The position numbers and the translations under genes were made by a program. Under the pieces are notes generated by a model. That model was given only the letters and a program-made list of their open reading frames with translations. It was not told the DNA's origin and made no database searches. Shown here piece by piece: positions 11,329 through 55,242 of a DNA stretch of 64,000 nt. The stretch covers positions 682,001-746,000 of the forward strand of contig NZ_QXTG01000001.1 of the NCBI RefSeq assembly GCF_003581425.1. The letters run 5' to 3'. The DNA is from Amnibacterium setariae. Lineage in GTDB: Bacteria > Actinomycetota > Actinomycetes > Actinomycetales > Microbacteriaceae. Positions within the stretch are counted from its first letter, which is position 1. Each line of letters begins with the position of its first letter.

Positions 11329-11363
11329 GCCGCGCACCGGGCGTCGAGCGCACGACGCCGATC

Positions 11364-11388
11364 GGTGCCCCTGGAGGGACTCGAACCC
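11364..11388. repeat. attL: 25-bp duplication of the tRNA-Arg 3' end
   Basis: The 25 bases from GGTGCCCCTGG to CTCGAACCC are identical to 25,469-25,493, the CCA/acceptor and T-arm part of the tRNA-Arg gene. Only this 3' end is present here, without the rest of the tRNA, as expected for the far end of a tRNA-integrated element. Confidence 0.88.
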
Positions 11389-11490
11389 GAACTCCGCCCG
11401 CGTGAGCGCGGATGGACATGCCCAGATCCGCGTGTTCATGCGGATCTCGGGTCACGGGACGTCGGTAGTGCGGCGCTCGATCCGCCCGGG

Positions 11491-11510
11491 TTGCAGTCAA
11501 AATGCAGTCA
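11491..11510. promoter_or_regulatory. integrase arm-type binding sites, left end
   Basis: Two direct copies of TGCAGTCA begin at 11,492 and 11,503, one helical turn (11 bp) apart. The same pair with the same spacing (TGCAGTCA and CGCAGTCA) occurs at 25,378-25,396 beside the other end. Such paired repeats flanking att cores are the usual arm sites of tyrosine integrases. The 358-base gap 11,329-11,686 holds this, attL and no gene. Confidence 0.65.
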
Positions 11511-11686
11511 CGGGATGAGCCGACCGCGAAGGGCGGCCCGCGCGATCGACGATGGCGACCGCGAGGCCGGTCGAGTAGATGAGCAGGGGGACCCGTGGCG
11601 GCCCTCACCCGGTGACGAGGGCGTCGGGACGCGACGGTCCGCAGGCTCCTCCCCGGCATCGGGGGGCTCGTAGACTGCCGTTCACT

Positions 11687-12421
11687 ATGGCCGGACGAGC
11701 AGCAGTCGGCGGCGGAAACGCGCAGTCCCAAGTCGTCGTCGATGGCATCCGAGCCATGATCCGGGGCGGGCGGATCGGGCCGGGGTCACGGATACCTGCC
11801 GAAGCCGAGCTGGCGACGGAGTTCGGTGTCTCGAGGAGTTCGCTTCGAGAGGGTGTTCGCGCTCTTTGCGTACTGGGGGTGCTCGAGACCCGCCAGGGAG
11901 ATGGCACCTTTGTGACGTCCCTGGACTCGTCGGTGCTTTTCGCGCCGGTTGGATTCGCCCTCGACCTGCAGAGCGCGGAGCATCAGGACGACCTTCATCT
12001 CGTCCGGCGGGTGCTGGAGGCGGAGGCGGCATCACGCGCTGCGTTCCGTATGACGAATGACCAGATTCAGACCGCCGCAGCGATTCTTGATCGGATCGCC
12101 GGGGTCGTGGATGAACCCACGGACGCGGACCAGGAGGCGATCCTCGATGCGGACGTCGAGTTCCATCACGTGATCGCCCTGGGGGCTGGTAACGCTTCGC
12201 TCGCGGCGCTCATCGATGTTCTCGCGGACCGGACCTGGCGAGCCCGACTGTGGTTAGGGCTCCGGCATCAAGACCAGACGCGGATGGCGCACCGCGACCA
12301 TCTCGCGATCCTTCAGGCGCTGCGCGACCGCGACCCCGATCGCGCTCGCATGATGATGAACTACCACCTGACACTGGTCGAGGATCGTGTCCGCCTCGAC
12401 GGTCTGACCACGTCCCGGTAA
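11687..12421 (+). CDS. GntR-family regulator, FadR subfamily
   Basis: 244-aa one-component regulator. The N-terminal winged helix (about residues 10-75) contains IRAMIRGGRIGPGSRIPAEA, ELATEFGVSRSSLREGVRAL and LETRQGDGTFV. The C-terminal FCD-type all-helical domain has LVRRVLEAEAASRAA, DVEFHHVIALGAGN (metal/ligand Asp and His) and HRDHLAILQAL. A TAGACT box lies 10 bases before ATG, consistent with a near-leaderless transcript. It ends one base before the convergent GH95 stop. As the only regulator of the island it probably controls the sugar genes, answering to a sugar acid as many FadR-type proteins do. Confidence 0.88.
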   Translation: MAGRAAVGGGNAQSQVVVDGIRAMIRGGRIGPGSRIPAEAELATEFGVSRSSLREGVRALCVLGVLETRQGDGTFVTSLDSSVLFAPVGFALDLQSAEHQDDLHLVRRVLEAEAASRAAFRMTNDQIQTAAAILDRIAGVVDEPTDADQEAILDADVEFHHVIALGAGNASLAALIDVLADRTWRARLWLGLRHQDQTRMAHRDHLAILQALRDRDPDRARMMMNYHLTLVEDRVRLDGLTTSR

Positions 12422-12422
12422 T

Positions 12423-14687
12423 TCAGGCCCAAGTGAGATCCAATCGATGCTCGCGTCCTGACGGAAGACGGATCTCCCGGACCGCCTGACCGTCCACCGC
12501 GACTGGGCGCGGGAGGCGTAGCCGGACGGGCTGACTTCTCACCCAGTCCGACTGCTCCTCGCCGCCGAGCAGCACCTGCAGCCCCGTCGTGCTCCACTCG
12601 AGTCGTTCGACGACGAGTCCCGTTCGGGTGGTGAGCCCGCCGACGGCGCCGCCCGGCCAGGTCGCCGGAAGCGCGGGCAGGAGGTCGATCCGATCCCGCG
12701 AAGACCGCACGAGCATGGATGCCACGACTGCGGGGAGACCGCCGGCGGCATCGACGTTGAAAATGACGCCCGCATCGTGCGTCGTGGTCATCGAGGGGCG
12801 AGTGTGTAGTTCGGCGAGCCATCGCACGCACTGCTCGGCCGAGTCCGCATCGCCGAGCGCAGTCGCCGCGAGCCCGAGCTGCGTGAGCCCGAACGCCATC
12901 TCCATGTTCCCGGGAGGCGCCGTGGGGTCCATCGCCCGCCACGCGATCTTGTCCTTCACGAGTCGACCGGCCGCGGACCGCAGTTCACCCGCTTCGAAGG
13001 CGGGATCGGTGTCGTACCAGAGGGGGTAGAGCTGCGAGACGTGGCGATGCGCAAGCCGGTCCGGCTGTCCCGCGCCGGACCACTCGGCAAGGCGCCCCTG
13101 CTCGACGCGGAACCGCGGCTCGATCTCGAGATGCGGCGGCGTCTCGCCACGCGCCTCGGCGAGGATCCGTGCGGCGCGGGCGGCGTCGCGCACGACCGCG
13201 ACGTCCATGGCGGGGTCGACGCTCAGCGGCGTCGCGGAGCCCGCGGGCGTGTTCTCGGGGCTGTACGCCGGCGCGAAGACGCCCTCGGCCACCAGGTCCT
13301 CGTAGAAGTGCAGGATCTCCAGCACGAGCTCCCAGGTCTCGTCGTCGACGAGGTCGCGGTCGCCGGTGGCGAGGACGGCGTCGGCCAGCATGCGCAGGAT
13401 CCAGCCGCCGCACGAGATCCAGAACTCGTGGGGGAAGTCGCCGTTGAAGTGGTTGGCGAGGCCGTGGCTGCTCATGCGACTCGGCAGGAGCGCTCCTCGG
13501 AAGCCGAAGAGCTGCTTCGCGTTGACGCGGTAGTCGTCGAGGTGCGGGACGAGGAGTCGGATGAGCGCGCGGATCTGCTGCGGGGTCCCCGTCGGGATCA
13601 GTGACGCGACACCGCCGTTCTGCACATTCCCGTTGAGCGTGTAGTCGGCCGACCACGCCGGAGCCCACGTTCCCTGCCACACGCCCTGCAACGTGGCGGG
13701 GAGCTCTCCGGTGGATCCGATCACGGTGTACCGCCCGGCCGCGTAGGCGAGCTCGATCAGTCCACGCAGCAGCGCGGTGTCCTGGCCGGCGCCGTGCAGA
13801 ACATGCTCAGTCGGGACGTCCTCGCTCACGCCGGAGTGGAGGTCGAGCCACGACGCCCGCAGCAGCGCGGCGTGGTCGCCGATGTCGAGGGACGGATCCT
13901 GCTCCACGCCAGAGACGGCGACGTCGAGTTCGAGCGCGGCCCACTCGTCCGGCCGCAGATCGAATCGCGCGACGACCGAATCCCGCTGCAGCTCGATCTG
14001 CGATCCCGGAGGAAGTCGCAAGGTCGTCGTCGAGCCGATGTCGGAAGCGCCAGGCGCGGTGCTGAAGACGCTGAACCGCGGCCCGGCCGGGTCCTGATCC
14101 ACTTCGGCTCGCACGTGGTCGGCGTAATCGACCGCGCCGGGAAGGTCGGCGTGATTGTCCGTCGCCATGCCGAGCCGGAGCTCGAGCGCGGTCTCGACCT
14201 GCGAACGCACCTCGACCAGCACTGACTGGGTCCCTCGCGGCGCCCGGACTCGCATCTCGGCTCGGCTGTCGGACCAGTGCAGCGCGACGGCACCGTTCTC
14301 CAGGTCGACGGCGCGTCGATAGCCGCTGAACGAGTGGTCGCCGAAGCGGACCCGGAGCTCCGAGCAGGGCGCGAGCGGATCGGTCCAGATCAAGCGGTCG
14401 TAGCCCGCCGCGGCGACGGCGTCATCGACGATCCGTGCTGCTCGAGCGGCGTCCCCGTCGATCAGCGCCGCGCGAGCGGCTCCGCGCACGTCCGCGAGCG
14501 GTGGAGGCAGCGGGCGCGGGTGCACGGGCAGGAAGAACCGTTCGTGACTGATCGAGACGACGTGCTCTCGCGGCGAGCCCCAGACGAGCGCGCCGACGCG
14601 ACCGCTCCCGACGATCACCCCCTCGTCCCATCTGTCCGCAGTGCTCGTGCTCACGAAGGAGCTGCGGCCGGGGCGCTCTGCGCTCAC
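12423..14687 (-). CDS. glycoside hydrolase family 95-type enzyme (alpha-L-fucosidase or alpha-L-galactosidase type)
   Basis: 754-aa enzyme without a signal peptide, so probably cytoplasmic and acting on imported oligosaccharide. It matches GH95 along its length: GVIVGSGRVGALVWG near the start, ELPATLQGVWQGTWAPAWSA, the N-x-N pair (Asn352 and Asn354 in YTLNGNV) that in the family activates the catalytic water, the acid-bearing SPEN (Glu478), and EWSGAG with HRHVSQLYPLW. GTG 14,687 overlaps the stop of the upstream GH2 gene (GTGA), so the pair is co-translated. In GH95 the substrates are alpha-1,2-linked L-fucose or L-galactose; the nearby L-fuconate dehydratase favours L-fucose. Confidence 0.82.
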   Translation of the reverse strand: MSAERPGRSSFVSTSTADRWDEGVIVGSGRVGALVWGSPREHVVSISHERFFLPVHPRPLPPPLADVRGAARAALIDGDAARAARIVDDAVAAAGYDRLIWTDPLAPCSELRVRFGDHSFSGYRRAVDLENGAVALHWSDSRAEMRVRAPRGTQSVLVEVRSQVETALELRLGMATDNHADLPGAVDYADHVRAEVDQDPAGPRFSVFSTAPGASDIGSTTTLRLPPGSQIELQRDSVVARFDLRPDEWAALELDVAVSGVEQDPSLDIGDHAALLRASWLDLHSGVSEDVPTEHVLHGAGQDTALLRGLIELAYAAGRYTVIGSTGELPATLQGVWQGTWAPAWSADYTLNGNVQNGGVASLIPTGTPQQIRALIRLLVPHLDDYRVNAKQLFGFRGALLPSRMSSHGLANHFNGDFPHEFWISCGGWILRMLADAVLATGDRDLVDDETWELVLEILHFYEDLVAEGVFAPAYSPENTPAGSATPLSVDPAMDVAVVRDAARAARILAEARGETPPHLEIEPRFRVEQGRLAEWSGAGQPDRLAHRHVSQLYPLWYDTDPAFEAGELRSAAGRLVKDKIAWRAMDPTAPPGNMEMAFGLTQLGLAATALGDADSAEQCVRWLAELHTRPSMTTTHDAGVIFNVDAAGGLPAVVASMLVRSSRDRIDLLPALPATWPGGAVGGLTTRTGLVVERLEWSTTGLQVLLGGEEQSDWVRSQPVRLRLPRPVAVDGQAVREIRLPSGREHRLDLTWA

Positions 14688-17122
14688 GACCGGTCCTCGA
14701 ATGCAGCCACCGTCAGCACCTCGAGGGGTGATTCGGGGAACTCGATGCGGATGTACCGAGCTTCGCGCTCGGGGAAGACCATCCGCAGCTGCGAGAGCTC
14801 GTCGACCCGGTCGGTGCCGACCGCCTCGTAGCCCTCGTGGCGGAGGGCGGGCGACGTCGAGATCGTGACCGGTGCGCTGCCGAGGGCGCCGACCGAGATC
14901 GTGTTCAACCGTCGAGGGCCTTCGAGGTCGACGATCAACCAGTGGCCCGGCGTCTGGTCGGGTGCAGTCCATCCTGCTGCGGTGTTCGGGTCCGTCACCC
15001 ACGCAGCGCTCCTGCTCGGAGCGGTGCCGCTCGCGAAGACAGGACGACGGGCGGCGAGGTTCGCGGAGTCCGCCGTTCGCGGGACGCCGCTGCGCGTCGG
15101 GGGGCCGGAGGGGAACCGCAGAGGACGGTCGTCCCACTGCGGTCCGCCGATGGCTTCGATCAGCAGCTCGGCGTCCGGCAGGCCGGGGGCGGTCGCGACG
15201 ACGCGGATCGGTCCGGCGAAGTACGCGCGCAGGTCGACCGCTCCGAGGCCGTCGAGCAGCGAGTCGTCGTCAGCGACCATCCGATGCTCCCGTCCCGTCG
15301 GGAATCGGCCGTCCCCCTCGAGAACGCGGAGCTGGACCTCCAGCGGCGCCCGTGTCCGACTGCTGCTCCCATCCAGCACGCTGACGATCAGCCGCGCGTC
15401 GTCGGTGCCGTCGGTGCGGATGGTCGGCCTGTCGCTTTGGATCGAGAGCGCAGCCGCCGGGGCCGTGGTGCTGGGCGCGGGGGCGGGTTCTCCGGTGAGA
15501 CGTTCGCGGTACCAGAAGTAGGAGCGGAGGGGGAGCCGACGGTGATCGATGAAGCCCATGTGGCTCATGCCCGCGAAGATGCTCCCGTGGTGGAAGGCGC
15601 ACCACAGGGCGACGCCGGACCGCCAAGAGTGAGGCACCTCGGTGCCGTCCGTGTATCGCGCCAGTGACTCACCTGGGCGGTCCTCCACGACGCTGCCGTA
15701 CTCCGTCACCATGTTCGGGAACCCGGGGTCCGGATACAGCGCGGCCCCGTCGCCGTTGTAGCCGGCGACATCGCCGAGGACATCGAGGTTGCCGCGCTGC
15801 GCGCCGCCGACGGCTGCAGGTCGTCCGGGGTCCAGCTCGCGGGATCGTGCGACCATCCTCGAGGTGAGCGTCCTGGCCTTCTCGAGGACCTCTGGCTCGC
15901 TGAAGTAGACCTCGTTGCCCATGGACCAGGCGATGATGCTGGGGCGGTTGAAGTTGGTCCTGATCATCGTCTCGAGGCTGGCAAGGACGTTGCGCTCGAA
16001 CCGCTCCTCCTGCTCCTGATGGATCGGGTATGCGCTCGCCGTCCAGAACCCTTCGACGGTCTCGCCTCCAGTTCCCCAGAACGGCGCTTCCGACCAGAAG
16101 AGCACGCCCTGACGGTCGCACTCGCGGGCGAACTGTTCGTGGTGGGGGTAGTGCGAGCCGCGGATGAAGTTCATCCCGGCCGCCTTGATGAGGGCGACGT
16201 CGCGCGCGATCGCCGCGTGGGTGACGCCGTCCCCCCACCCGGCGTGATCCTGGTGGACGTTCGCCCCCTCGAGCCAGAGGTGCTCGCCGTTGAGGAAGAA
16301 GCCGCGGTCGGCCGTGAACTCGAACCACCGCAGACCGAACTCATCGTTGTCCTCATCGAGCACCAGGTCGTCTCGCAGGAGTTCTGCGGTCACGGCGTGG
16401 AGTACCGGGTCGTCGGGGTGCCACAGCTCCGGCTGCTCGATCTCGAACGAGACGGATGCGGTCCCACGGCCCACCGCGGGGAGGTCGATGCGAGTCGATG
16501 CGCGTTGCGTGGAGCCGCGATGCTCGATGGTGCAGCGGACCTCGACCGACTGCTCGATCGCGGAGTCGTTCTCCATCGCGACGGTGACGACGACAGTCGC
16601 GCGATCGGCCGACACGGACGGGGTGGAGACGGCCACGCCGTAGGGCGCGATGTGCACGAGGTCCGTGACGACGAGCGACACGTCGCGGTAGACGCCACCG
16701 TTGAACACGTGCTCGCCTGCGCGAGGGGGCAGTTCGGCGTCCCACTCGTTGTCGACCTCGAGATGAAGCAGGTGCCGTCCGGGCATCGCCCAACGCGTCA
16801 GGTCGAGCTCGAACTCGGAGTAACCGCCCGCGTGGGATCCGACCGGCCGGCCATCGAGAAAGGCCGCCAGGTGCTGGAACACGCCGCCGAAGCGCAGCGC
16901 GATCCGCTTGCCCTTCCAGGACTCCGGGATCTCCAGGTCGTGCTGGTAGCTGCCGGCGCCGACATAGAACGTCGTGTCGAGGTCGGCTGGCACCGCGAAC
17001 GAGTGGGGCAGCCCGACGTCGAGCCATCCATCGTCCGCCTGGTCGGCCCGTCGGTCGGCGGGTTGGCTGCCGAATCGGAACCGCCAGTCGCGGTTCTGTC
17101 CCTCGATGATGCGCGTGGCCAC
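14684..17122 (-). CDS. glycoside hydrolase family 2 protein with C-terminal discoidin-like module
   Basis: 812-aa beta-glycosidase. N-terminal sugar-binding sandwich (FGGVFQHLAAFLDGRPVG, GHLL-type strands), an Ig-like domain, then the TIM barrel with GANVHQDHAGWGD, FIRGSHYPHHE, the acid/base Glu404 in WSMGNEVYF and nucleophile Glu474 in VTEYGSVVED. The last about 140 residues (SANLAARRPVFASG, WIVDLEG-like, RYIRIEF) look like an F5/8-type (CBM32-like) carbohydrate-binding domain. No signal peptide. GTG 17,122 is preferred: GGAGG lies four bases upstream; TTG 17,140 has nothing comparable. GH2 covers beta-galactosidase, glucuronidase and mannosidase; which is unknown. A TAGGAT -10 lies about 30 bases upstream. 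Confidence 0.86.
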   Translation of the reverse strand: MATRIIEGQNRDWRFRFGSQPADRRADQADDGWLDVGLPHSFAVPADLDTTFYVGAGSYQHDLEIPESWKGKRIALRFGGVFQHLAAFLDGRPVGSHAGGYSEFELDLTRWAMPGRHLLHLEVDNEWDAELPPRAGEHVFNGGVYRDVSLVVTDLVHIAPYGVAVSTPSVSADRATVVVTVAMENDSAIEQSVEVRCTIEHRGSTQRASTRIDLPAVGRGTASVSFEIEQPELWHPDDPVLHAVTAELLRDDLVLDEDNDEFGLRWFEFTADRGFFLNGEHLWLEGANVHQDHAGWGDGVTHAAIARDVALIKAAGMNFIRGSHYPHHEQFARECDRQGVLFWSEAPFWGTGGETVEGFWTASAYPIHQEQEERFERNVLASLETMIRTNFNRPSIIAWSMGNEVYFSEPEVLEKARTLTSRMVARSRELDPGRPAAVGGAQRGNLDVLGDVAGYNGDGAALYPDPGFPNMVTEYGSVVEDRPGESLARYTDGTEVPHSWRSGVALWCAFHHGSIFAGMSHMGFIDHRRLPLRSYFWYRERLTGEPAPAPSTTAPAAALSIQSDRPTIRTDGTDDARLIVSVLDGSSSRTRAPLEVQLRVLEGDGRFPTGREHRMVADDDSLLDGLGAVDLRAYFAGPIRVVATAPGLPDAELLIEAIGGPQWDDRPLRFPSGPPTRSGVPRTADSANLAARRPVFASGTAPSRSAAWVTDPNTAAGWTAPDQTPGHWLIVDLEGPRRLNTISVGALGSAPVTISTSPALRHEGYEAVGTDRVDELSQLRMVFPEREARYIRIEFPESPLEVLTVAAFEDRS

Positions 17123-17181
17123 AGTGCCTCCAGTTCGCAAGACGGTGAAGTCATCCTACGTCTCTCGGGCATCGAAGCAGG

Positions 17182-17193
17182 ATTTGCGCAAAT
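17182..17193. promoter_or_regulatory. perfect 12-bp palindrome in the divergent GH2/ABC promoter region
   Basis: ATTTGCGCAAAT, symmetric throughout, 60 bases before the GH2 start and 100 before the permease start. It is a likely operator for a dimeric regulator, possibly the island GntR protein. The TTGCGCAA core also resembles LacI-type operators, but no LacI gene is in the window. Confidence 0.5.
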
Positions 17194-17219
17194 TTCACCA
17201 GATCGTGACCGTAGACATC

Positions 17220-17259
17220 AGACGTCTTGTTTGACTGCGTGAGCGGAGTTGCCTACCAT
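17220..17259 (+). promoter_or_regulatory. promoter of the sugar ABC transporter operon, with adjacent palindrome
   Basis: TTGACT (17,231-17,236), 17-base spacer, TACCAT (17,254-17,259): a good vegetative promoter 35 bases before the permease ATG. AGACGTCT, a perfect palindrome, ends four bases upstream of the -35 and is a second operator candidate. Confidence 0.68.
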
Positions 17260-17293
17260 CCGAAAGGACGACGCGGTCTGAGGAGGGTCGACG

Positions 17294-18211
17294 ATGACTG
17301 AAACAGCAGCGGTGCGAAGGCACTGGCGCGAGTACCTGTCGATCTCGCCGTTCTTCGTGCTCTTCGCCGCGTTCTCGATCGTGCCGCTGATCTACGCGCT
17401 GTACCTGTCGACGCAGCAGTGGGACGGGATCGGCGATTCGAAGTTCGTCGGGCTCGCGCAGTGGCAGCGTCTCGTGGCCTCCAACGACTTCTGGTACGCG
17501 ACCGGCAACACGTTCCTCATCTTCGCGATGGGCCAGATCCCGGTCATCATCGGAGCGTTGATCGCGGCAGTCCTCCTGTCCCAGCCGAGGCTGCGCGCCC
17601 GAGGGCTCTACCAGACCGCATTCTTCCTGCCCCAGGTCACGTCGCTCGTGGTCGTGGCAGTCGTGTTCCAAGCCGTGTTCAGCAACCGATTCGGTCTGAC
17701 GAACGTGCTGCTGCAGGCCGCAAAGCTGCCGACCTTCCAATGGCTGACCGACCCATGGGGGATCCGGATCGTCATCGCGGCGATGATCATCTGGCGCGGC
17801 TTCGGCTACTTCCTGCTGATCTTCATGGCCGGCATCTCCGCGATCGATACCGGCCTGTACGAGGCGGCGCGGCTCGACGGCGCCGGGCCTGTCCGGATCC
17901 TGGGCTCGATCACGCTTCCCGTGCTCCGACCGACGGTGATCTTCGTCGCCCTCACCGGCACCATCTCCGGCCTGCAACTCTTCACCGAACCACAGCTGCT
18001 CTTCGGTGGCGGAAGCGGTCCGGACCGGGGCGGCCTCACGATGATGCTGCTGCAGTACCAGTACCTCGGCGGCCCCGGCGCAGCGACCGCACAGACCGCG
18101 GTGACGCCGGATCTCGGATACGCCAGCGTCATCGGATGGGCCGTCTTCATCATCCTGCTCGCGATCGCCGCGCTCTCGTTCAGGTTCACCCGACGCGGGC
18201 TGGAGGACTGA
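17294..18211 (+). CDS. carbohydrate ABC transporter permease (MalF/UgpA-like)
   Basis: 305-aa inner-membrane protein of the CUT1 importer class, six predicted helices. The first helix follows a short basic N-terminus (ISPFFVLFAAFSIVPLIYAL). The EAA loop that contacts the ATPase is visible at YEAARLDGAGPVRILGSITL. AGGAGG lies 7 bases before ATG and a strong promoter lies upstream. The stop is one base before the ATG of the second permease, so they form a heterodimer operon. No ABC ATPase is encoded in the island; a shared MsmK-type ATPase elsewhere is the usual solution. Confidence 0.92.
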   Translation: MTETAAVRRHWREYLSISPFFVLFAAFSIVPLIYALYLSTQQWDGIGDSKFVGLAQWQRLVASNDFWYATGNTFLIFAMGQIPVIIGALIAAVLLSQPRLRARGLYQTAFFLPQVTSLVVVAVVFQAVFSNRFGLTNVLLQAAKLPTFQWLTDPWGIRIVIAAMIIWRGFGYFLLIFMAGISAIDTGLYEAARLDGAGPVRILGSITLPVLRPTVIFVALTGTISGLQLFTEPQLLFGGGSGPDRGGLTMMLLQYQYLGGPGAATAQTAVTPDLGYASVIGWAVFIILLAIAALSFRFTRRGLED

Positions 18212-18212
18212 G

Positions 18213-19097
18213 ATGACATCGATCACCCGAACGGGTTCTGCGCGCGGCACATCCACGCGGACCCGCCGCCGCCCCATCCGGCCGAACCTCGTCGCGACGC
18301 ACGTCGTGCTCGCCATCGGACTCGTGCTGTTCGCCTTCCCGTTCTACTGGCTCGTCGTCATGGCGACCAGCTCGACGAGCGACATCTTCTCCTTTCCCCC
18401 GCGCCTGATCCCGGGGCCGGAGTTCTTCAACAACTTCGGGCAGGTCCTCGCGAACACCACGTTCGTGCAGGCGTTCTTCAACTCCATCTGGCTGACGGCG
18501 CTGACTGCCACGATCCAGCTGTTCCTGGCATCGCTCGCCGGTTACGTCTTCGCGAAGCGACGGTTCCCGGGTCGGGACCGGCTGTTCGGCCTCGTGCTCG
18601 TGACCCTCGTGCTCCCCACCGGGGTCGCGCTGGTGCCGAGCTACCAGATCTACGCCGGACTGGGGTGGCTGAACTCGTTCTGGCCGCTGATCATCCCGTC
18701 CGCCGTGTCCGCCTTCGGCGTCTTCTGGATGCGCCAAGCCGCAGTCTCGGCAGTGCCCGACGAGGTGATCGACGCGGCCGCGATTGATGGTGCGGGATTC
18801 CTCCGCACGTACTGGACCGTCGTCCTCCCCATGATCCGACCGTCGCTCGTCGCGCTGGGGATCTTCCAGATCATGTGGACCTGGAACGACTACCTGTGGC
18901 CCCTGCTCGTCCTCGGCAATCCGGCTCAGTACACGTTGCCGATCGCGATCCAGCAGCTGAAGGGGAACTACGGCAACGTCGACTACTCCGTCGTCATGGC
19001 CGGCACGCTCGTCGCCACCCTGCCGCTCATCGCACTCTTCCTCGCCCTCCGTCGCACCGTGCTCGACAACGTCGCCGGTAGCGCGGTCAAGGGCTGA
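18213..19097 (+). CDS. carbohydrate ABC transporter permease (MalG/UgpE-like)
   Basis: 294-aa partner permease with six predicted helices. A basic N-terminal tail ([10 protein letters not shown]) precedes [20 protein letters not shown]. The EAA loop is at [20 protein letters not shown], and [14 protein letters not shown] is typical of MalG-like subunits. It starts two bases after the first permease stop, so is coupled to it. Together with the downstream lipoprotein it forms the membrane channel of the island's sugar importer. Confidence 0.92.
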
Positions 19098-19145
19098 CCG
19101 CTCACCCTCCCTCGCACCATCCCATCCACCTCGAAAGGCACGACC

Positions 19146-20378
19146 ATGTCCAAAATCAGAACGGCCGCCGCCATGGGCGCCGCCGCGGCGCTGATCGCAG
19201 CACTCGCCGGTTGCTCCTCCGGAGGCAGCGACTCAAAGACCGTCACCATCTGGTACCGACCGAACTCGCTTCCCGCGGCGTCCATCAAGGGCGTGCAGAA
19301 GCAGTTCCCAGACGTGACCATCAAGCTCGTCAAAACACCCGACGTCGACACGAAGCTGACGTCCGCACTGCGCGCGAACTCGGGTGTCCCGGACATCGCC
19401 GTCGCCAACACGCAACCGCTCCGAAGCGCGCAGAGCAAGATCGTCGACGTCTCGAAATACGGCTTCGCGAGCGTGAAGTCCGACTACCTCGACTGGAAGG
19501 TCAAGGCAGCGCAGGGCGACGACGGCGCGCAGATCGGGATCCCCATCGACATCGGTCCCGAAGGCTTCTTCTACCGGGTCGACAAGTTCAAGGCCGCAGG
19601 GCTGCCGACCGACCCCGCAGACGTCGGCAAGCTCGTCTCGACCTTCGACGGGTACGAGCAGGTCGCCCAGACGACGAAGGACAAGCTCGGCGCCTTCGTC
19701 TGCGACTCGCCCGACTCCTCGGTCTACGTCCCGAAGACCTTCGGGCAGGGGTACTTCTACTACAGCTCGGACGGGAAGCTCGACCCCGGCTCCGCCGTCA
19801 ACAAGCAGGGCTTCATCGACGCGACCACCTTCGGGCAGAAGGGGCTGTGCCTGAACGCGCAGCCCTACCAGTCGGACTGGAGCGCCGGCGCTTCGCAGGG
19901 GAAGCTCGTCGGATTCGTCGGCCCGGCCTACGAGGCGACCCTGCTCAGCTCGTCCGCGCAGAACAGCTCCGGCCAGTGGCGGGTGACGACCGCCCCCGGC
20001 GGCTCGTCCTCGCAGATCGGATCGAACCTCTCCGTGTTCAAGACCAACGCGGACCCGAAGGTCACGACCAAGATCGCGATCTGGCTCACCAACGCGACCA
20101 ACCAGGCGAGCGGGTACCAGACGGACCGACTCTTCCCCTCGACCCCCGCGTCCTACTCGATGGCTGCCATGAAGGAGCCGGAGTCCTACTTCGGCGGTCA
20201 GGTCACCGCGCAGGTCTTCGCGGGCATCGCGAAGGACGCGCCGACCGTCACCACCGGCCCGGCGTCGATCACGACCCAGACCGTCTTCAACAACGCGATG
20301 ATCGACGCGGTCAAGAACAAGACGAACCCGTCGGACGCGTTCGCGAAGGCGCTGAGCGCCGCGCCGACCGCGCAGTAG
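19146..20378 (+). CDS. sugar ABC transporter substrate-binding lipoprotein
   Basis: 410-aa extracellular solute-binding protein. The N-terminus is a lipoprotein signal with lipobox LAGC (Cys near residue 23), followed by a Ser/Gly linker, so the mature protein is membrane-anchored outside. The body shows the family-1 binding protein pattern: [41 protein letters not shown] and [14 protein letters not shown] of CGAAAGGCACGACC is the ribosome site. A strong hairpin follows the stop, which usually lets binding protein mRNA exceed downstream mRNA. The specificity is unknown; the neighbours suggest a fucose-containing oligosaccharide. Confidence 0.9.
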
Positions 20379-20399
20379 TCCAGCGATCTCAACCACCCC

Positions 20400-20432
20400 A
20401 GCGGGGCGCCGCCACCTCAGCGGCGCCCCGCT
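20400..20432 (+). terminator. hairpin between binding protein and fuconate dehydratase genes
   Basis: AGCGGGGCGCCGC and GCGGCGCCCCGCT form a perfect 13-bp stem with loop CACCTCA, 21 bases after the binding protein stop. No T-run; probably a partial terminator or 3' stabiliser within the operon. Confidence 0.6.
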
Positions 20433-20464
20433 CGTGGCCGCTGCCACCAGCCCCGAGGAGAGTC

Positions 20465-21826
20465 ATGCCCACGATCACCGCGATCGATACCTACGACGTC
20501 CGATTCCCGACCTCCCTGTCCGCGGACGGGTCCGACGCGATGAACAAGGACGGCGACTACTCCGCCGCCTACGTCGTCGTCCGTACGGACCAGCCCGGAT
20601 TGGCGGGGTACGGGTTCACGTTCACCATCGGGCGAGGGAACGACCTGTGCGTCAGCGCAGCGGAGCTTCGCGGACGCCCCCTTCTCGGTCGAGACGTCGA
20701 CGCGGTCGTCCAAGACCTCGGCGGCACGTATCGCGACCTGCAGTCCGACAGCCAGCTGCGGTGGCTCGGGCCGGACAAAGGCGTGGAGCACCTCGGACTC
20801 GCGGCGGTCATGAACGCCGTATGGGACCTCGCAGCCCGACGGGCTGAGAAGCCCCTCTGGCGGCTCCTCAGCGACATGACGCCCACCCAGCTCGTCGACG
20901 CCGCGGACCTCCGCTACCTCTCGGACGCGCTCACGCGCGACGAGGCGATCGCGATGCTCCAGGACCTCGAGCCGACGCGGGCATCACGGATCGCCGAGCT
21001 CGACGCGACGGGGTACCCCTGCTACACCACCAGTGCCGGATGGCTCGGGTACTCGGACGAGAAACTGCGGCGGCTCTGCCAGGAGGCGGTCGACGCGGGC
21101 TACCGGCACATCAAGCTCAAGGTCGGCGCCGACCTCGATGAGGACCGACGTCGCCTCGCCATCGCGCGCGAGGTCATCGGCTGGGACGCCGCTCTCATGA
21201 TCGACGCGAACCAGGTCTGGGACGTCCCGCAGGCGGTCGAGTGGGTATCAGCACTCGCCGAGTTCAAGCCGCTCTGGATCGAGGAACCGACCAGCCCGGA
21301 CGACGTGCTCGGTCACGCCACGATCCGACGGGCAGTCGCACCGATCGGAGTCGCGACGGGGGAGCACGGCATGAATCGCGTGCTGTTCAAGCAGCTCTTC
21401 CAGGCCGAAGCGATCGACTTCTGCCAGCTCGATGCAGCGCGCCTCGGCAGCGTCAACGAGGTGCTCGCCGTCTACCTGCTCGCGAAGAAGTTCGACGTCC
21501 CCGTCTGCCCGCACGCCGGCGGTGTCGGCCTGTGCGAGCTGGTGCAGCACCTGTCGATCTTCGACTACGTCGCCGTATCGGGCTCGCTTGAGCGGCGAGT
21601 GACGGAGTACGTGGACCACCTCCACGAGCACTTCGTGGAGCCCTGCATCGTCGAGGACGGCGCCTACCAGCTGCCCACGGCCCCCGGCTACTCGGCCGAG
21701 ATGCACGAGTCGACGCTGACGGCCTACTCCTTCCCCAACGGAGACTTCTGGGCCGGCGAAGGAGCTGCGCTCGCGAGCCGAGCACTCCCCGCCCTTTCGC
21801 GCGGTGGACTGCTCGCAGCGCGTTGA
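20465..21826 (+). CDS. L-fuconate dehydratase (enolase superfamily)
   Basis: 453-aa cytoplasmic enzyme that would convert L-fuconate to 2-keto-3-deoxy-L-fuconate. The N-terminal capping part has the fuconate dehydratase signature [27 protein letters not shown] and [11 protein letters not shown]. The barrel carries the family catalytic set: KLKVG (Lys base), DANQVW (metal Asp), EEPTSPDD (metal Glu), GEHGMNR (metal Glu) and CPHAGGVG (His base). GAGGAG lies before ATG. It is the only enzyme of oxidative L-fucose breakdown in the window: dehydrogenase, lactonase and the downstream steps are missing. Close relatives act on other sugar acids, so the exact substrate is inferred. Confidence 0.86.
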
Positions 21827-22470
21827 ACGCCAATCGCACGGCCCCGGCTCCTGGCCGCGCGCGGCTTAGTGCCCGGGCAACTCGGCGCGATCGTCGCCCC
21901 CGAGCCGCAGACGACCTGGGGACGCGGCATCCCTTCCGATCCTGTCATCCCTCGGATTGACCACCCTCGTTCCCGTTGACCGAGGTCCCGGACAGGCGCG
22001 CGATGCAGTGGCCGTCGAAGCCCAGCAGGTCACCCGCTACTTCAGCACCGTGGAGCGAGCCCGACGAGACGACGAGCGGCCGGTCCCGAGTTCATCGCCG
22101 CATGCGCTCCCCTCATCGCCTACGACCTCTGCGAGTCGGTCCTGGCAACGCCGCGGGACGCGACCTCTGACGGATGCGCGTAGACGCCGGCGAACTAGTC
22201 CACGTCGTGCGCCGGTTGCTTCGCGGGACAACCACTGGGCCTTCGAGGGAGCGCTCACCGTTGCGATGTGCGTCAAGCGCACGGCGAGTCAGGCCCGCTC
22301 GAGGTCCTCGATGTCCGCGGCGATGCAGGGCCGTCCTGTGCGGGTGGTCGTGGCCGCCCGGAACGCACGAGCGGCCGACCCTTCCAGGGCCGGCCGCTCG
22401 TCGAAGCTGTGGTTACTTGCCTACGGGGTTGCACATGGTCGATGCCTTCCTACGCTGGATCGCCAACGTA
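21827..22470. other. 644-base gap without a supportable gene
   Basis: Between the dehydratase and the HEPN-like gene. Open frames exist on both strands but their translations are Arg/Ser-rich, lack hydrophobic cores and have no ribosome sites; coding character is weaker than in neighbours. It may be decayed cargo. The only clear structure is the strong hairpin at 22,367-22,401. Confidence 0.5.
22367..22401. terminator. strong composite hairpin in the gap after fuconate dehydratase
   Basis: ACGAGCGGCCG and CGGCCGCTCGT (11 bp) enclose CCCT/AGGG (4 bp) with loop TCC. The size and position fit a bidirectional terminator between the plus-strand sugar operon and the minus-strand HEPN-like gene, though it is 540 bases from the first. 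Confidence 0.6.
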
Positions 22471-23811
22471 TCACTCAGCGTCGGGTGTCGTCCCGGTATT
22501 CCTGACCCCCTCTTCGTAGGTCCTCAGCTCCTCGAGGAGCGGCCAGGACAGCCAGAACTCGACGGACAGTGACGGAGTGCCTCTGATCCTCTGAACGATC
22601 TCGTAGGCGGCAGCGGTCTCATCGAGGAGCGCGAACCGCGCGAGGGCGAACTCCTGCGCCAGCGCGGATGTGTCCCAAGCCCTCACCTCTGCTTCGCACT
22701 CGCTGAAGCGGCCGAGCCTCTTGAGGGCGAGCCACCCGTTCACCTTGACGACCAAGGCGGTGTATCCGCTCTGAAACGGGCTGCTGTTGACCTCGCGGCT
22801 GACGCCATCAACTACGCGGTGTCGCGCCTGCTGAAGGAGCCGGTACAGACTGTCGCCCAGGAAGCGCTCGACGTGCTCGACCTCTTCCGGGTCCTTCATA
22901 ACCGAGTAGGCGATGCGCGCCGTGATCGTCAGGGTGACGATGAGTAATCTGTCGGCTGCATCTCGCAGGTAGTCGGCTGAAACCGGAAGCAGCGTGCCGA
23001 GTTCCGGCTCGGGCCTCAGGCCTCGCAGATTTTCGAGATACGGCGCGGACACCCTGCCGCCATTGTGCATGTGGACGTGACGGCGCTGCAGGACCTCCCG
23101 CGTCGTCAGGTCCGTCGCGATCGGAGGTGGCGTCACGTGCGCCCTGGTCTCGAGCCAGCGCATCTGCTCGACGTAGCTCTCACGAAGCAGAGAGTCGACG
23201 GCCTTCTCGACCACACTCTCCTTGAACGCGTCCAAGGACTCGTATGCGATGACGTCCTTCCAGGCGAACTGGCGATCGCTTGTGGACAACAGCCCGGGGT
23301 GAAGGTCGATGAGTTCCCGCACGAGGCCGGCGAGGAGCACCTCGAAGTCCGCGATCAGCGCGCCCAACAGCGACGACAAGAGCACAGAGGTGCCTGGGCT
23401 CTCAAAGTGAGCGCCCAGGATCGTGGCGATGTAACGGAAGCTGTAGCCCTGCGGCAGGGACGCGAAGAGGCGGTCGAGAGCGACAGACGTGACCTCCGCC
23501 GGCTCACCCGCCTCGAGATCGCCCGGACGGACCTCCCGGGCTTCCTGAAGTGCATCCCAGGATCGATCGAACGTTTCGTCGTCGATCGCGGGTTGATGGG
23601 CACGGACGGCCTCGCGCGCCCGCGCTCTCGCATCATCGATGACTTCCCGCTGGCGCTCGACGAACGACACCAGACGGAGGAGCTCGTGCTGGCTCGTCTC
23701 GAATTGGCTCGCGAGGCCGACGAGCCGCTGCCCAGGCGTCAACTCGAAGACATGCGCGGTCTCGTCGTCGTGCGCCTCGTCGGGGGCTGAGGCCTGCGGC
23801 GGATCTGTCAT
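22471..23811 (-). CDS. HEPN-like domain protein, function unknown (possible RNase/defence)
   Basis: 446-aa soluble, mostly helical protein carried by the island. Residues about 40-75 are charged and coiled-coil-like. A helical core (LLSSLLGALIADFEVLLAGLV, EYSL-type helices to about 222) leads to REVLQRRHVHMHNGGRV, in which Arg244-x4-His249-Asn250 fits the Rx4-6H signature of HEPN domains, followed by YL as in HEPN proteins with RN-H-N-G endings. The last about 180 residues are helical and repeat-like. HEPN proteins are often ribonucleases in toxin-antitoxin or phage defence, but no antitoxin or partner is adjacent. ATG 23,811 used; GTG 23,820 also possible. No ribosome site is visible. Confidence 0.6.
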   Translation of the reverse strand: MTDPPQASAPDEAHDDETAHVFELTPGQRLVGLASQFETSQHELLRLVSFVERQREVIDDARARAREAVRAHQPAIDDETFDRSWDALQEAREVRPGDLEAGEPAEVTSVALDRLFASLPQGYSFRYIATILGAHFESPGTSVLLSSLLGALIADFEVLLAGLVRELIDLHPGLLSTSDRQFAWKDVIAYESLDAFKESVVEKAVDSLLRESYVEQMRWLETRAHVTPPPIATDLTTREVLQRRHVHMHNGGRVSAPYLENLRGLRPEPELGTLLPVSADYLRDAADRLLIVTLTITARIAYSVMKDPEEVEHVERFLGDSLYRLLQQARHRVVDGVSREVNSSPFQSGYTALVVKVNGWLALKRLGRFSECEAEVRAWDTSALAQEFALARFALLDETAAAYEIVQRIRGTPSLSVEFWLSWPLLEELRTYEEGVRNTGTTPDAE

Positions 23812-24001
23812 GCGTGCCACCGTATGCGGCCCGCGATGGTCGCTATCTCATTGCGAACAGGGCTCGGTCTTTAGGCAGGGACCGCTGTGTCGGTCGCGAC
23901 TTGCGCCTCGGCGTCTTGAAGGTTCCCCGCGTCGTCCGGATCGCCAAATCCCTCGCGAAGTGCCTCGTCGGGTGCGTGGGGTCTTGCGAGGGGTTCCGTG
24001 C

Positions 24002-24128
24002 GTCTTGCCCTGTCCTGGCCTGCCACCTCCGCGGACGCGGCTCCCGAACCACCCCCACACAACTTGAAATGAAGCGTTGTGCAGGGGTGGTTCGGGAGTG
24101 CAGGTGGCAGGCCAGGACAGGGCAAGAC
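24002..24128. repeat. 127-nt nested palindrome
   Basis: Three nested inverted repeats: outer 27 bp, perfect (24,002-24,028 with 24,102-24,128, starting GTCTTGCCC and ending GGGCAAGAC); middle 15 bp, perfect (24,041-24,055 with 24,084-24,098); inner CACAAC/GTTGTG around a 12-base loop. The left arm has an extra 12-base CCGC..GCGG mini-hairpin. It occupies most of the 481-base gap between the HEPN-like and integrase genes, which otherwise holds only a purine-rich stretch at 24,125-24,180 and no gene. Confidence 0.9.
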
Positions 24129-24292
24129 AAGAGGAAGGGATAGGGAGGACAGGGCTGGGGAGGAGGTCCGGATGGTGTTGTGATGCGAGCACACGAGGAG
24201 GAGCAGTGACGGGGCAGCAGCGACTAGGGATGGTGCTGTCGGAGTGAGTCGTTGATCGCGGCAGTAGGGGTCGAGCGCTGAGGGGGCGGACG

Positions 24293-25531
24293 GTGGGAAG
24301 CATCGAGTCGTATGAGACGGCGGACGGGCGTCGGTACAAGGTCCAGTTCAGAAAGTCAGACCGGATGTCGACGACGAAGCGCGGCTTCCGGACGAAGCGC
24401 GAGGCGCAGGTGTTCCTGGCGCAGACCGAGCTGCAGCTCGCGGGCGGCACCTGGATCGACGGTCGCGCGTCGCGCATTACCGTCTCCGAAATCGGGCCGG
24501 CGTGGCTTGCGGCGAAGGCGCACCTCAAGCCGTCGTCGTTGCACGTCCTGCAGACCGCCTGGCGGATCCATGTCGAGCCGGTCTGGGGAGATCGCCCCGT
24601 GGGATCGATCACGCCGAGCGAGATTCAGGACTGGGTGGCGGGGCTCACCCGGCACCGCAGCGCGACGGTTGTCATCCGCGCCTACGGGGTGCTCGCTGGG
24701 GTCCTAACGCGGGCGGTGAACGATCGACGGATCGCGATGAGCCCGGCTCGCAACATCGCCCTCCCGAGGAAGAGCAGGAAGCACCGCAGCTACCTCACCC
24801 ATGCGCAGGTCGAGGCCCTTGCCAAGGAGGCGCGGGAACACCGCGCGATGGTGCTCCTGCTCGCCTACACCGGGCTGCGTTGGGGAGAGGCAGTCGCCCT
24901 TCGGGTCGAGAGCATTGACTTCGATCGGGAGCGCGTCCTCGTGCGGGCGAACGCGGTCAACGTGGCAGGGCGGATCATCCCTGGGACGCCGAAGAGCCAC
25001 GACTCCCGGAGCGTCGCGTTCCCCCACTTCCTCGCCGCCCGGCTCCGGCTCGAATGCGCGAGGAAGGCGCCGGGCGATCTCGTCTTCGGGGCGGGTCGGG
25101 ACTACCTACCCACTCCGACGCACAAGGACGGCTGGTTCGCGGGAGCGAGGAAGCGCGCCGTCGCAGCGGATCCGACGTTCCCTGCGCGGCTCGCCATCCA
25201 CGACTTGCGGCACACAGCCGCCAGCCTCGCCATATCCGCCGGTGCGAACGTGAAGGCGGTGCAGCGGATGCTCGGGCACGCGTCGGCCGCCATGACGCTC
25301 GACACCTACGCGGATCTGTTCGAGGACGATCTGGACGCCGTTGCGAGCGCTCTTGATCACGCCAGAGCGGCCGCAATTGCAGTCAGACCGCAGTCACGAG
25401 GCCGATCTGAATGGTCTGCTTCAACCCGAGATCCCCGGAACTACGCGGCAGAACCAGGCATGCAGAGTGGTGCCCCTGGAGGGACTCGAACCCCCAACCG
25501 TTTCCTTAGGACGGAACTGCTCTTCCATTGA
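24293..25531 (+). CDS. tyrosine-type site-specific integrase of the island
   Basis: 412-aa recombinase. N-terminal AP2-like arm-binding domain (about residues 8-55, RYKVQFRKSDR and RGFRTKREAQVFL), SAM-like core-binding domain (65-150), catalytic domain with Arg196 (TGLRWGE), His303 and Arg306 (HDLRHT), His329 (LGHAS) and nucleophile Tyr339 (DTYADL). AGGGGG precedes GTG. From residue 393 the frame runs through the att core and antisense to tRNA-Arg; the last 12 residues (PNRFLRTELLFH) are written by the tRNA. After excision the same frame would end RTPPA (405 aa). Arm sites lie within its own 3' coding region. It would integrate and excise this element. Confidence 0.95.
   Translation: MGSIESYETADGRRYKVQFRKSDRMSTTKRGFRTKREAQVFLAQTELQLAGGTWIDGRASRITVSEIGPAWLAAKAHLKPSSLHVLQTAWRIHVEPVWGDRPVGSITPSEIQDWVAGLTRHRSATVVIRAYGVLAGVLTRAVNDRRIAMSPARNIALPRKSRKHRSYLTHAQVEALAKEAREHRAMVLLLAYTGLRWGEAVALRVESIDFDRERVLVRANAVNVAGRIIPGTPKSHDSRSVAFPHFLAARLRLECARKAPGDLVFGAGRDYLPTPTHKDGWFAGARKRAVAADPTFPARLAIHDLRHTAASLAISAGANVKAVQRMLGHASAAMTLDTYADLFEDDLDAVASALDHARAAAIAVRPQSRGRSEWSASTRDPRNYAAEPGMQSGAPGGTRTPNRFLRTELLFH
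25377..25396. promoter_or_regulatory. integrase arm-type binding sites, right end
   Basis: TTGCAGTCA then CGCAGTCA, starting 11 bp apart, within the 3' part of the integrase gene. It is the counterpart of 11,491-11,510 (same sequence, same spacing). Confidence 0.65.
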
Positions 25532-25542
25532 GCTACAGAGGC
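25468..25542 (-). tRNA. tRNA-Arg (anticodon CCT)
   Basis: Complete cloverleaf on the minus strand: acceptor GCCTCTG pairs with CAGGGGC, D arm GCTC/GAGC, anticodon stem TTCC/GGAA with loop GTCCTAA (U33, anticodon CCT for AGG codons), T arm GGGGG-TTCGAGT-CCCTC, discriminator A and encoded CCA. The top pair of the anticodon stem is mismatched (G-A). It is the attachment site of the island, which reconstitutes its 3' end. Confidence 0.93.
25469..25493. repeat. attR: 25-bp core inside tRNA-Arg
   Basis: Identical to attL at 11,364-11,388. It covers two bases of the encoded CCA, the acceptor strand and the T arm of tRNA-Arg on the minus strand, and codons 393-401 of the integrase on the plus strand. 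Confidence 0.88.
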
Positions 25543-25565
25543 GGGACGAGGAGCAGTGTAGAGGG

Positions 25566-25931
25566 GTGGACCCCGAGGACGTCGCCCGGCTGACCGCGCT
25601 CGAGGAGTCGCTGTGGCGGCCCGGGACGCGGTTCGACCGCGACCACCTCGCCCGCGTGTACGCGGACGACTTCGACGAGTTCGGCCGCTCGGGCCGGCAC
25701 TGGTCGCGGGAGGCGTCGATGGCGGCGGAGGCGCAGGCGTTCGAGACGGTGCTGCCGCTGCCGCATCTCAGGATCCGCGACCTCGGCCCCGACGTCGCGC
25801 TGCTCACCTACCGCAGCGAGACGACGTACCCCGACGACGACGCGGTCCACGTCGCCAACCGCAGCTCCGTGTGGCAGCGGATCGACGGCGAGTGGCGGCT
25901 CCGGTTCCACCAGGGGACCGCGACGCACTGA
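25566..25931 (+). CDS. NTF2-like / DUF4440-type small protein
   Basis: 121-aa soluble protein with the NTF2-like cone-fold pattern: an N-terminal helix (EDVARLTALEESLWRPG), LARVYADDFDEFGRSG, then strands LRIRDLGPDVALLTYRSE and the typical closing SSVWQRIDGEWRLRFHQGT. Such proteins are either small enzymes or binding modules; no catalytic residue can be assigned. GTG 25,566 is used, with AGAGGG just upstream. It starts 24 bases beyond the tRNA-Arg 5' end on the opposite strand, so its promoter must overlap that of the tRNA. Confidence 0.78.
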   Translation: MDPEDVARLTALEESLWRPGTRFDRDHLARVYADDFDEFGRSGRHWSREASMAAEAQAFETVLPLPHLRIRDLGPDVALLTYRSETTYPDDDAVHVANRSSVWQRIDGEWRLRFHQGTATH

Positions 25932-25992
25932 TCGGCGGCGGTGCGGGGTGGCCTCGAGTCCCTCGCCCGGAACACCGGCCGCGGGGCCCATT

Positions 25993-26019
25993 GCTGCGCT
26001 CGCACCTGACCAGCGGAGG
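25993..26019. repeat. REP-like intergenic repeat, copy 1
   Basis: GCTGCGCTCGCACCT followed by GACCAGCGGAGG matches 50,489-50,516 except for one missing C. Both copies are intergenic. Confidence 0.55.
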
Positions 26020-26045
26020 AGGCGGAGGCCGACGGGGTCGGCGGG

Positions 26046-55088: not shown

Positions 55089-55093
55089 CCCCC

Positions 55094-55156
55094 CGAAGTG
55101 CTCACGCTTCTGGACGCCGGATCGCCGATCCGGCGTCCCGAAGCGTGAGCACTTCG
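55094..55156. repeat. 63-nt near-perfect hairpin after the DHA2 transporter
   Basis: Outer stem 17 bp (CGAAGTGCTCACGCTTC with its complement), a 2-base mismatch TG/CC, inner stem 11 bp (GACGCCGGATC/GATCCGGCGTC), loop GCC. Starts six bases after the stop codon. Much longer than a terminator needs; probably a terminator that is also a repeated element. Confidence 0.85.
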
Positions 55157-55242
55157 TGCAGGGAGGGGCCGGTTCCCGCGGCAAGGGGTGAACTCCTCAG
55201 GCCCGCGGCGGGTCGACCCGGCATCATGACCGCGGAGGTGCC

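What the first reader, a model, noticed from the sequence alone, without database searches (positions are those of the whole stretch)
11364..25493. tRNA-Arg(CCT) integrative element that carries a glycan-degradation module
A 14.1-kb block bounded by 25-bp identical repeats, one in an intact tRNA, with integrase and arm sites. It carries GntR, GH95, GH2, a sugar importer and L-fuconate dehydratase: a metabolic island rather than a phage or conjugative element. No transfer or replication gene is recognisable.
Basis: partly seen in the sequence, partly recalled or inferred. Interest (0 to 1): 0.62.

Follow-up and report, generated by a model that had tools for sequence, protein, structure and literature searches.

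The report
Glycan island with probable transfer origin
A 14-kb block of sugar-breakdown genes sits in a tRNA gene of a soil bacterium and carries, besides its integrase, a large conserved DNA hairpin that relatives keep beside a plasmid transfer gene, so the block is probably a hitchhiker that moves with the help of other elements.

Summary
In detail: identical 25-bp cores at 11364-11388 and 25469-25493 (the second in an intact tRNA-Arg(CCT)), a tyrosine integrase, two matching arm sites, and glycan cargo. The genus is Amnibacterium (Microbacteriaceae).

The reading 'metabolic island without transfer function' missed a non-coding part. At 24002-24128, just upstream of the integrase, lies a near-perfect branched hairpin. 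All 7 genomes held of the genus have it (25 copies, 1-9 each). With one copy from another genus, 20 of 26 stand upstream of an integrase. A covariance model finds it in 29 of 398 Microbacteriaceae genomes, with strong covariation. Outside the genus it lies upstream of a small protein, c1, at 12 of 21 places and on 5 of 5 plasmids read; there an ATPase gene, weakly like coupling proteins, follows c1. c1 is a remote, sub-threshold relative of MOBC relaxases.

Best reading: the hairpin is an origin of transfer and the block an oriT-only integrative mobilizable element, excised by its own integrase and nicked by a c1-type relaxase supplied in trans. Sister elements suggest the steps: oriT-relaxase-ATPase (plasmids), oriT-relaxase-integrase, oriT-integrase (this one). 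Excision, nicking and transfer are inferred, not shown.

The parts
11364..11388 (.). left att core, truncated copy of the tRNA 3' end
   Evidence: identical to 25469-25493
11491..11512 (+). left integrase arm site pair (inferred)
   Evidence: motif occurs twice in the window
11579..12421 (+). GntR/FCD regulator
   Evidence: Pfam E 6e-22 and 4e-17
12423..15137 (-). GH95 glycosidase; the ORF overlaps the GH2 ORF, so the true start is probably near 14690
   Evidence: Pfam E 3e-37; gene call 12423-14618
14684..17140 (-). GH2 glycosidase
   Evidence: Pfam E 2e-26
17294..18211 (+). ABC permease
   Evidence: Pfam BPD_transp_1
18213..19097 (+). ABC permease
   Evidence: Pfam BPD_transp_1
19146..20378 (+). 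solute-binding protein
   Evidence: Pfam SBP_bac_8 E 3.5e-19
20465..21826 (+). enolase-superfamily sugar-acid dehydratase (L-fuconate possible, not settled)
   Evidence: Pfam MR_MLE_C E 4e-62; NCBIfam below cut-off
22471..23820 (-). 449-aa protein of unknown function
   Evidence: no match in Pfam, PADLOC, PHROGs, NCBIfam
23944..24001 (+). left dyad of the putative oriT
   Evidence: aligned with 25 other copies; plan kept in other genera; its own fold is weak here, z -1.5
24002..24128 (+). branched hairpin, core of the putative oriT
24293..25531 (+). tyrosine integrase; its last codons lie in the att core and tRNA
25377..25398 (+). right integrase arm site pair (inferred)
25469..25493 (.). right att core
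25468..25542 (-). intact tRNA-Arg(CCT)

Best explanation
The block is an integrative mobilizable element of the oriT-only kind (iOriT, also called MGI). Its tyrosine integrase joins the two 25-bp cores and releases a circle. The circle carries a structured origin of transfer (23944-24128). A MOBC-like relaxase (c1), supplied in trans by a sister element in the same genome or by an incoming Microbacteriaceae plasmid, nicks it there. The plasmid's coupling ATPase and type IV secretion system pass the strand to a new cell, where the integrase inserts it at tRNA-Arg(CCT). The cargo is a glycan-use operon. Shown: att cores, tRNA, integrase frame, conserved covarying structure, its place upstream of c1 on plasmids and upstream of integrases in sister islands. 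Inferred: that c1 is a relaxase, nicking, excision, transfer, and which helper acts.
For: Three copies in the own genome, each 0.2-1.1 kb upstream of an integrase on the same strand, though those integrases are 51% and 29% identical to this one. Of 26 copies, 20 have an integrase downstream on the same strand (one a remnant), 11 of these with c1 between, 9 without. Covariation: 15 of 46 pairs change on both sides within the genus set (shuffles 6.6; 0 of 500), 30 of 38 across genera (shuffles 17.6; 0 of 500) (the second structure was predicted on the same alignment). Of 21 places outside the genus 12 have c1 downstream on the same strand. On 5 of 5 plasmids read, of 18 with c1, the hairpin precedes c1; PLSDB types 3 of these 5 as MOBC. 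c1: NCBIfam MobC E 7e-4 and 9e-4; hhalign against PF13814 proteins E 6e-5, seven controls 0.07-0.68. Hairpins are more alike within a genome (0.858) than between (0.794), 0 of 5000 permutations, while integrases are not (0.374, 0.356). The plasmid HTH gene is absent from 24 Amnibacterium loci that keep the hairpin or c1.
Against: No Pfam match for c1; the NCBIfam match is far under its cut-off (19 of 200 bits). The similarity to PF13814 lies mostly in the winged-helix half; the other half alone gives E 0.007 over 23 columns. Only one of five c1 models is confident (pLDDT 79.6; others 44-55), and Foldseek has no match at E<=0.001. The ATPase's best Pfam matches are general AAA/NTPase models, all under cut-off. 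2 of 5 plasmids are typed non-mobilizable. 6 of 26 copies show no integrase; outside the genus 4 of 5 integrases lie on the other side of the hairpin and point away, and L082 has c1 on the other side. In G004 hairpins are not more alike within the genome (0.734, 0.742). No coupling-ATPase relative was found in the 7 genus genomes. No excisionase was recognised. An RNA role is not excluded.
Confidence: 0.65

Rival explanations
1. The hairpin is a replication origin (double- or single-strand origin) of plasmids and excised elements, not an oriT.
For: On plasmids it follows an HTH protein that could be a Rep, 40 nt after its stop in two records; PF13814 itself is called replication-relaxation.
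Against: The HTH protein has no homolog in 24 Amnibacterium loci and is found at one place besides the plasmids, while hairpin and c1 stay together.
Confidence: 0.15
2. The hairpin is a structured RNA leader controlling the downstream gene (c1 or integrase).
For: Covariation, same-strand position upstream of both genes, purine-rich tail in other genera, 0.53-0.93 of 60 nt.
Against: The downstream gene changes, and in 4 of 21 places outside the genus the integrase lies on the other side and points away; no Rfam family fits; the near-perfect 24-27-bp stems are palindromes in DNA as well.
Confidence: 0.12
3. A self-spreading palindromic repeat (MITE- or REP-like) that happens to sit in islands.
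For: Several copies per genome (up to 9), alike within a genome; 6 of 26 copies without integrase.
Against: Fixed place and orientation before c1 or integrase in most copies of the genus, and presence once per plasmid in five plasmids of three genera. Target-site duplications were not tested.
Confidence: 0.05
4. A fixed or decaying metabolic island with no present mobility.
For: No transfer gene inside; no coupling-ATPase relative found in the genus.
Against: Identical cores, open integrase frame, paired arm sites and an intact hairpin.
Confidence: 0.1
5. A phage satellite, the hairpin being a packaging site.
For: Integrase plus cargo without structural genes also fits satellites (general knowledge).
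Against: No similar DNA in 50,697 phage records, no c1 there, no relative of c1 in IMG/VR by the patterns used, no exact Amnibacterium-type pattern in IMG/VR; c1 is on plasmids.
Confidence: 0.03

Closest known systems
MGIVflInd1-type mobile genomic islands, oriT-only IMEs mobilised by SXT-family ICEs (PMC5704250, passages read)
   Same: Integrase, no relaxase, an oriT related to the helper's, transfer by a helper in trans.
   Different: Those use a MobH relaxase in Vibrio; here a MOBC-like protein, a large covarying hairpin, Microbacteriaceae, and mobilisation not shown.
iOriT / pOriT hitchers (PMC11389934, passages read)
   Same: Same class by definition: an element that carries only an oriT and needs relaxase and T4SS from others.
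   Different: Here the oriT is predicted from structure and context; no helper pair has been tested.
Streptococcal IMEs with a MobC relaxase (PF13814) and VirD4 coupling protein (PMC5357655, passages read)
   Same: A MOBC-type relaxase in an integrated mobilizable element.
   Different: Those have serine integrases and their own coupling protein; the Amnibacterium elements have tyrosine integrases, no coupling-ATPase relative in 17 loci, and about half lack the relaxase.
Enterococcus pAD1/pAM373 oriT with relaxase TraX (recalled; the TraX paper is not held)
   Same: As I recall, a large inverted repeat beside short repeats, next to a restriction-endonuclease-type relaxase.

Membership tests
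tRNA-targeting integrative element | tyrosine integrase beside the att site | tested here: met
   Phage_integrase E 9.6e-21, ORF reaches the right core
tRNA-targeting integrative element | direct repeats, one completing the tRNA | tested here: met
   25 of 25 bases, intact tRNA
tRNA-targeting integrative element | relative with an exact empty site | tested here: inconclusive
   A. kyonggiense: one core, no island genes, but 6.4 kb of other sequence between the flanks
tRNA-targeting integrative element | excised circle | not testable with these tools
   needs DNA from cells
oriT-only IME (iOriT, MGI) | integration module, no relaxase or T4SS inside | tested here: met
   no such gene recognised; no c1 downstream of the hairpin, nearest c1 in the genome at C1:374173, far outside the block
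oriT-only IME (iOriT, MGI) | carries an oriT related to that of a conjugative helper | tested here: inconclusive
   homologous structure upstream of c1 on 5 of 5 plasmids read, one with T4SS-type genes; that it is an oriT is inferred
oriT-only IME (iOriT, MGI) | mobilisation in trans | not testable with these tools
   needs mating tests
ICE | own relaxase, coupling protein and T4SS | tested here: not met
   none recognised in the block
MOBC relaxase (for c1) | Pfam PF13814 over its cut-off | tested here: not met
   no Pfam match for four Amnibacterium and two plasmid c1
MOBC relaxase (for c1) | NCBIfam NF041423 MobC over its cut-off | tested here: not met
   19 and 18.6 bits, cut-off 200
MOBC relaxase (for c1) | profile similarity to PF13814 proteins | tested here: inconclusive
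   E 6e-5, probability 65, controls 0.07-0.68, mainly the winged-helix half
MOBC relaxase (for c1) | restriction-endonuclease-like fold | tested here: inconclusive
   nuclease-like matches, best Z 9.3; one of five models confident
MOBC relaxase (for c1) | nicks its oriT | not testable with these tools
   bench test
Known structured RNA (Rfam 15) | match over a gathering score | tested here: not met
   only the tRNA in 11000-26500; in 4 loci at E<=1 the hairpin gives miRNA-type hits, all under cut-off
Phage satellite | shared sequence with a helper phage | tested here: not met
   no match of 23940-24140 in phage records; other parts of the block were not searched there

The most novel reading that the evidence does not exclude
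A new family of origins of transfer, defined by covarying dyads rather than by sequence and read (perhaps as extruded DNA) by a MOBC-like relaxase family that standard models miss. It links Microbacteriaceae conjugative plasmids to a large, unnoticed population of small tRNA islands, about half of them without any transfer gene, and is homogenised within most host genomes by the shared relaxase.
Probability: 0.45. Interest if true: 0.75.

Novelty: new variant of a known kind. Interest (0 to 1): 0.6.

Why it matters
Many genomic islands have an integrase and no visible transfer gene, and how they travel is an open question. A 2017 review says comprehensive searches for relaxase-less IMEs had never been made (PMC5704250, passage read); [quoted passage not shown] Here a structure-based model marks a probable oriT on plasmids, on islands with the relaxase-like gene and on islands without it, within one bacterial family. 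That makes helper-hitchhiker pairs predictable and testable, and offers a route by which glycan-use operons could spread among soil actinobacteria.

Tried and rejected
Blastn of the hairpin against the family gave 12 genomes; I kept 8 and dropped four short matches (L049-L052), which do not fold alike and lie beside no integrase. Blastn against plasmids and phages found nothing; plasmids do carry the structure with diverged letters. c1: no relative in PDB sequences, phages or, by two peptide patterns, IMG/VR. ATPase profile in PDB sequences: nothing. NF041423 in 148 genomes of the class rang nowhere, nor in the controls, so it shows nothing. The fold search listed no relaxase, which excludes nothing. 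The 449-aa protein: no family; model pLDDT 41, not searched; weak relatives on 4 plasmids, 25-32% identity. Order-level model search: one partial 52-nt match in another family (G478, E 1.7e-5), not counted. A weak model match at window 55091-55160 (24.7 bits) was not counted. Three further copies listed (G071:C54, G196:C27, G151:C83) came without loci and were not examined.
Full report
What is there. The window lies in an Amnibacterium genome (G000:C1:682001-746000; 17 of 20 named pattern matches are Amnibacterium, and contig lengths tie G001 to A. kyonggiense and G006 to CER49). The block 11364-25493 has identical 25-bp cores at its ends; the right one is part of an intact tRNA-Arg(CCT). A tyrosine integrase (24293-25531) reads into the tRNA. 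A paired arm motif occurs only twice in 64 kb, just inside each end. GC is 0.676 against 0.759 and 0.734 on the sides. Cargo: GntR, GH95, GH2, two permeases, a binding protein and an enolase-type dehydratase.

Relatives. The joined flanks were searched in 150 family genomes; 144 match, nearly always by the tRNA alone. A. kyonggiense keeps the right flank, the tRNA and much of the left flank in order, with one core and no island gene (L162); between its flanks lie 6.4 kb of other sequence, so it is a site without the island but not a base-exact empty site. CER49 (L163) matches in the right flank and tRNA only and lacks the island genes there.

Between the 449-aa gene and the integrase lies a hairpin of 127 bases: a 27-bp outer stem, a mini-hairpin and an inner stem; -110 kcal/mol for the stretch, z -13, none of 200 shuffles as good. 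The own genome has 3 copies, each 0.2-1.1 kb upstream of an integrase on the same strand, although those integrases are only 51% and 29% identical to this one. All 7 genus genomes held have it: 3, 9, 1, 1, 4, 1 and 6 copies. With one copy from another genus (G265) these 26 form 97.7% standard pair cells, and 15 of 46 pairs change on both sides against 6.6 in shuffles (0 of 500 reach it).

Neighbours of the 26 copies. An integrase lies downstream on the same strand in 20 (one a remnant) and a tRNA within 3.5 kb in 16. In 11 of the 20 a protein called c1 here lies between hairpin and integrase; in 9, the window among them, it does not. Six copies show no integrase downstream; for two of these only 1.5 and 2.6 kb were available. 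The nearest tRNAs have eleven different anticodons. Of 14 other tRNA-bearing loci tested, 6 show att repeats of 24-60 bp at distances of 6.0-9.4 kb within the 20 kb read. Their cargo varies. CER49 has six hairpins and no c1 found.

Beyond the genus. A covariance model built from the 26 copies finds 29 of 398 family genomes and 13 of 85 genera, the genus itself included; among 376 genomes of the order nothing convincing lies outside the family. Both searches use fast filters and can miss copies. Of 21 places outside the genus, G265 apart, 12 have c1 downstream on the same strand, 1 (L082) has c1 on the other side, 5 have an integrase (4 of them on the other side, pointing away), 1 has a marginal c1 match and 2 have neither within 1.5 kb. 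Aligned without the model, 23 copies from other genera and plasmids plus 3 from Amnibacterium keep 95.2% standard cells over 38 pairs, and 30 of 38 pairs change on both sides (17.6 in shuffles; 0 of 500). That structure was predicted on the same alignment, so the percentage leans towards it. A second dyad to the left keeps its plan while its letters change between genera; folded alone, 16 of 26 have z of -2 or lower and the window's has -1.5.

Plasmids. c1 homologs lie on 18 PLSDB plasmids, all Microbacteriaceae, 11 typed mobilizable and 7 not, and on no phage record. I read 5 of the 18; all 5 carry the hairpin upstream of c1 on the same strand, about 40-230 nt by my choice of start and 205-325 nt by annotation. 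PLSDB types 3 of these 5 as MOBC and 2 as non-mobilizable. c1 is followed by an ATPase. In 4 of these ATPases the best Pfam matches are general AAA/NTPase models, with weaker FtsK, TrwB or TraG-D_C matches in some, all under cut-off; one scanned with NCBIfam gives TraD and VirB4 first, under cut-off. pMspBDGP8B also has SCO6880-type, VirB4-like (ATP/GTP-binding) and M23 genes. With a profile the ATPase is found in 5 of 5 plasmids (4 of them built the profile), in 6 of 18 short loci of other genera (10 of 18 have c1), in 3 of 7 long loci (the same places as 3 of the short ones), and in 0 of 17 Amnibacterium loci, 9 of which have c1. So in Amnibacterium the integrase stands where the ATPase stands elsewhere.

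What c1 is. No Pfam match for six c1 proteins. Its best NCBIfam match is the MobC replication-relaxation family, E 7e-4 and 9e-4, 19 bits against a cut-off of 200. Against five PF13814 proteins hhalign gives E 6e-5 and probability 65; six column-shuffled and one reversed control give 0.07-0.68; the winged-helix half alone gives 1e-4, the other half 0.007 over 23 columns. The best of five models (pLDDT 79.6; the others 44-55) shows a winged helix and an alpha/beta domain resembling nucleases, best Z 9.3 to AF1548; Foldseek gives nothing at E<=0.001. Papers name PF13814 as MobC relaxases (PMC5357655) and MOBC as restriction-endonuclease-type (PMC11104534, PMC8152469); passages read. So c1 probably works like a MOBC relaxase; membership by cut-off is not met.

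Why oriT rather than something else. Hairpin and c1 stay together where the plasmid HTH gene (a possible Rep) is not found: 0 of 24 Amnibacterium loci and one place outside the plasmids. Hairpins are more alike within a genome than between genomes (0.858, 0.794; 0 of 5000 permutations), integrases are not (0.374, 0.356). That is expected if one factor in trans reads all copies; a self-spreading repeat would give it too, and G004 does not show it (0.734, 0.742). No Rfam family fits. An RNA role is not excluded.

Mechanism, step by step. Excision by the integrase: inferred from cores, arm sites and an open frame; no excisionase was recognised. Nicking at the hairpin by c1: inferred from position, structure and remote similarity. 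A c1 frame without internal stop lies in the same genome beside a 98% identical hairpin (C1:35010-35669). Export through a plasmid T4SS: inferred; the ATPase profile rang in 0 of 7 genus genomes, without a positive control in that call. Integration at tRNA-Arg(CCT): inferred; an element of another genus with the hairpin (L098) also ends at a tRNA-Arg(CCT).

Print check. 'Amnibacterium, genome, plasmid, integrase' gave 0 papers; 'Microbacteriaceae, relaxase, oriT' gave 3 (listing seen; passages read in one); searches showed no description of this structure in their listings. Only open-licence PMC papers are held, so this does not prove absence.

Verdict.

Noticed in passing
24293-25531: The integrase frame ends inside the tRNA: 412 aa when integrated, 405 aa with another tail in the predicted excised circle, so integration would change its last residues.
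   Followed up: partly
22471-23820: 449-aa protein beside the hairpin without any family match; weak relatives on two Nostoc, one Crinalium and one Kitasatospora plasmid.
   Followed up: partly
L033 (G000:C1:374173-376072): A c1 frame with an internal stop beside another integrase and no hairpin found in the 20-kb locus: probably a decayed sister element.
   Followed up: no
L063 (JABBOB010000010.1): Public MAG named Acidobacteria carries the Amnibacterium-type hairpin; its contig length equals that of a genome placed in this genus (G002), so the name looks wrong.
   Followed up: no
L038 (G006:C1:74300-94299): Three copies of the tRNA-Asn flank repeat (7967, 17256, 19705), as if two elements stood in tandem.
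   Followed up: no
L044 (G001:C1:826400-846399): A sister element shares permease and solute-binding-protein homologs with the window block, so sugar-import cargo may recur in this family.
   Followed up: no
20465-21826: The dehydratase has a second copy, 80% identical, on another contig of the same genome and close homologs in 44 of 85 family genera.
   Followed up: partly
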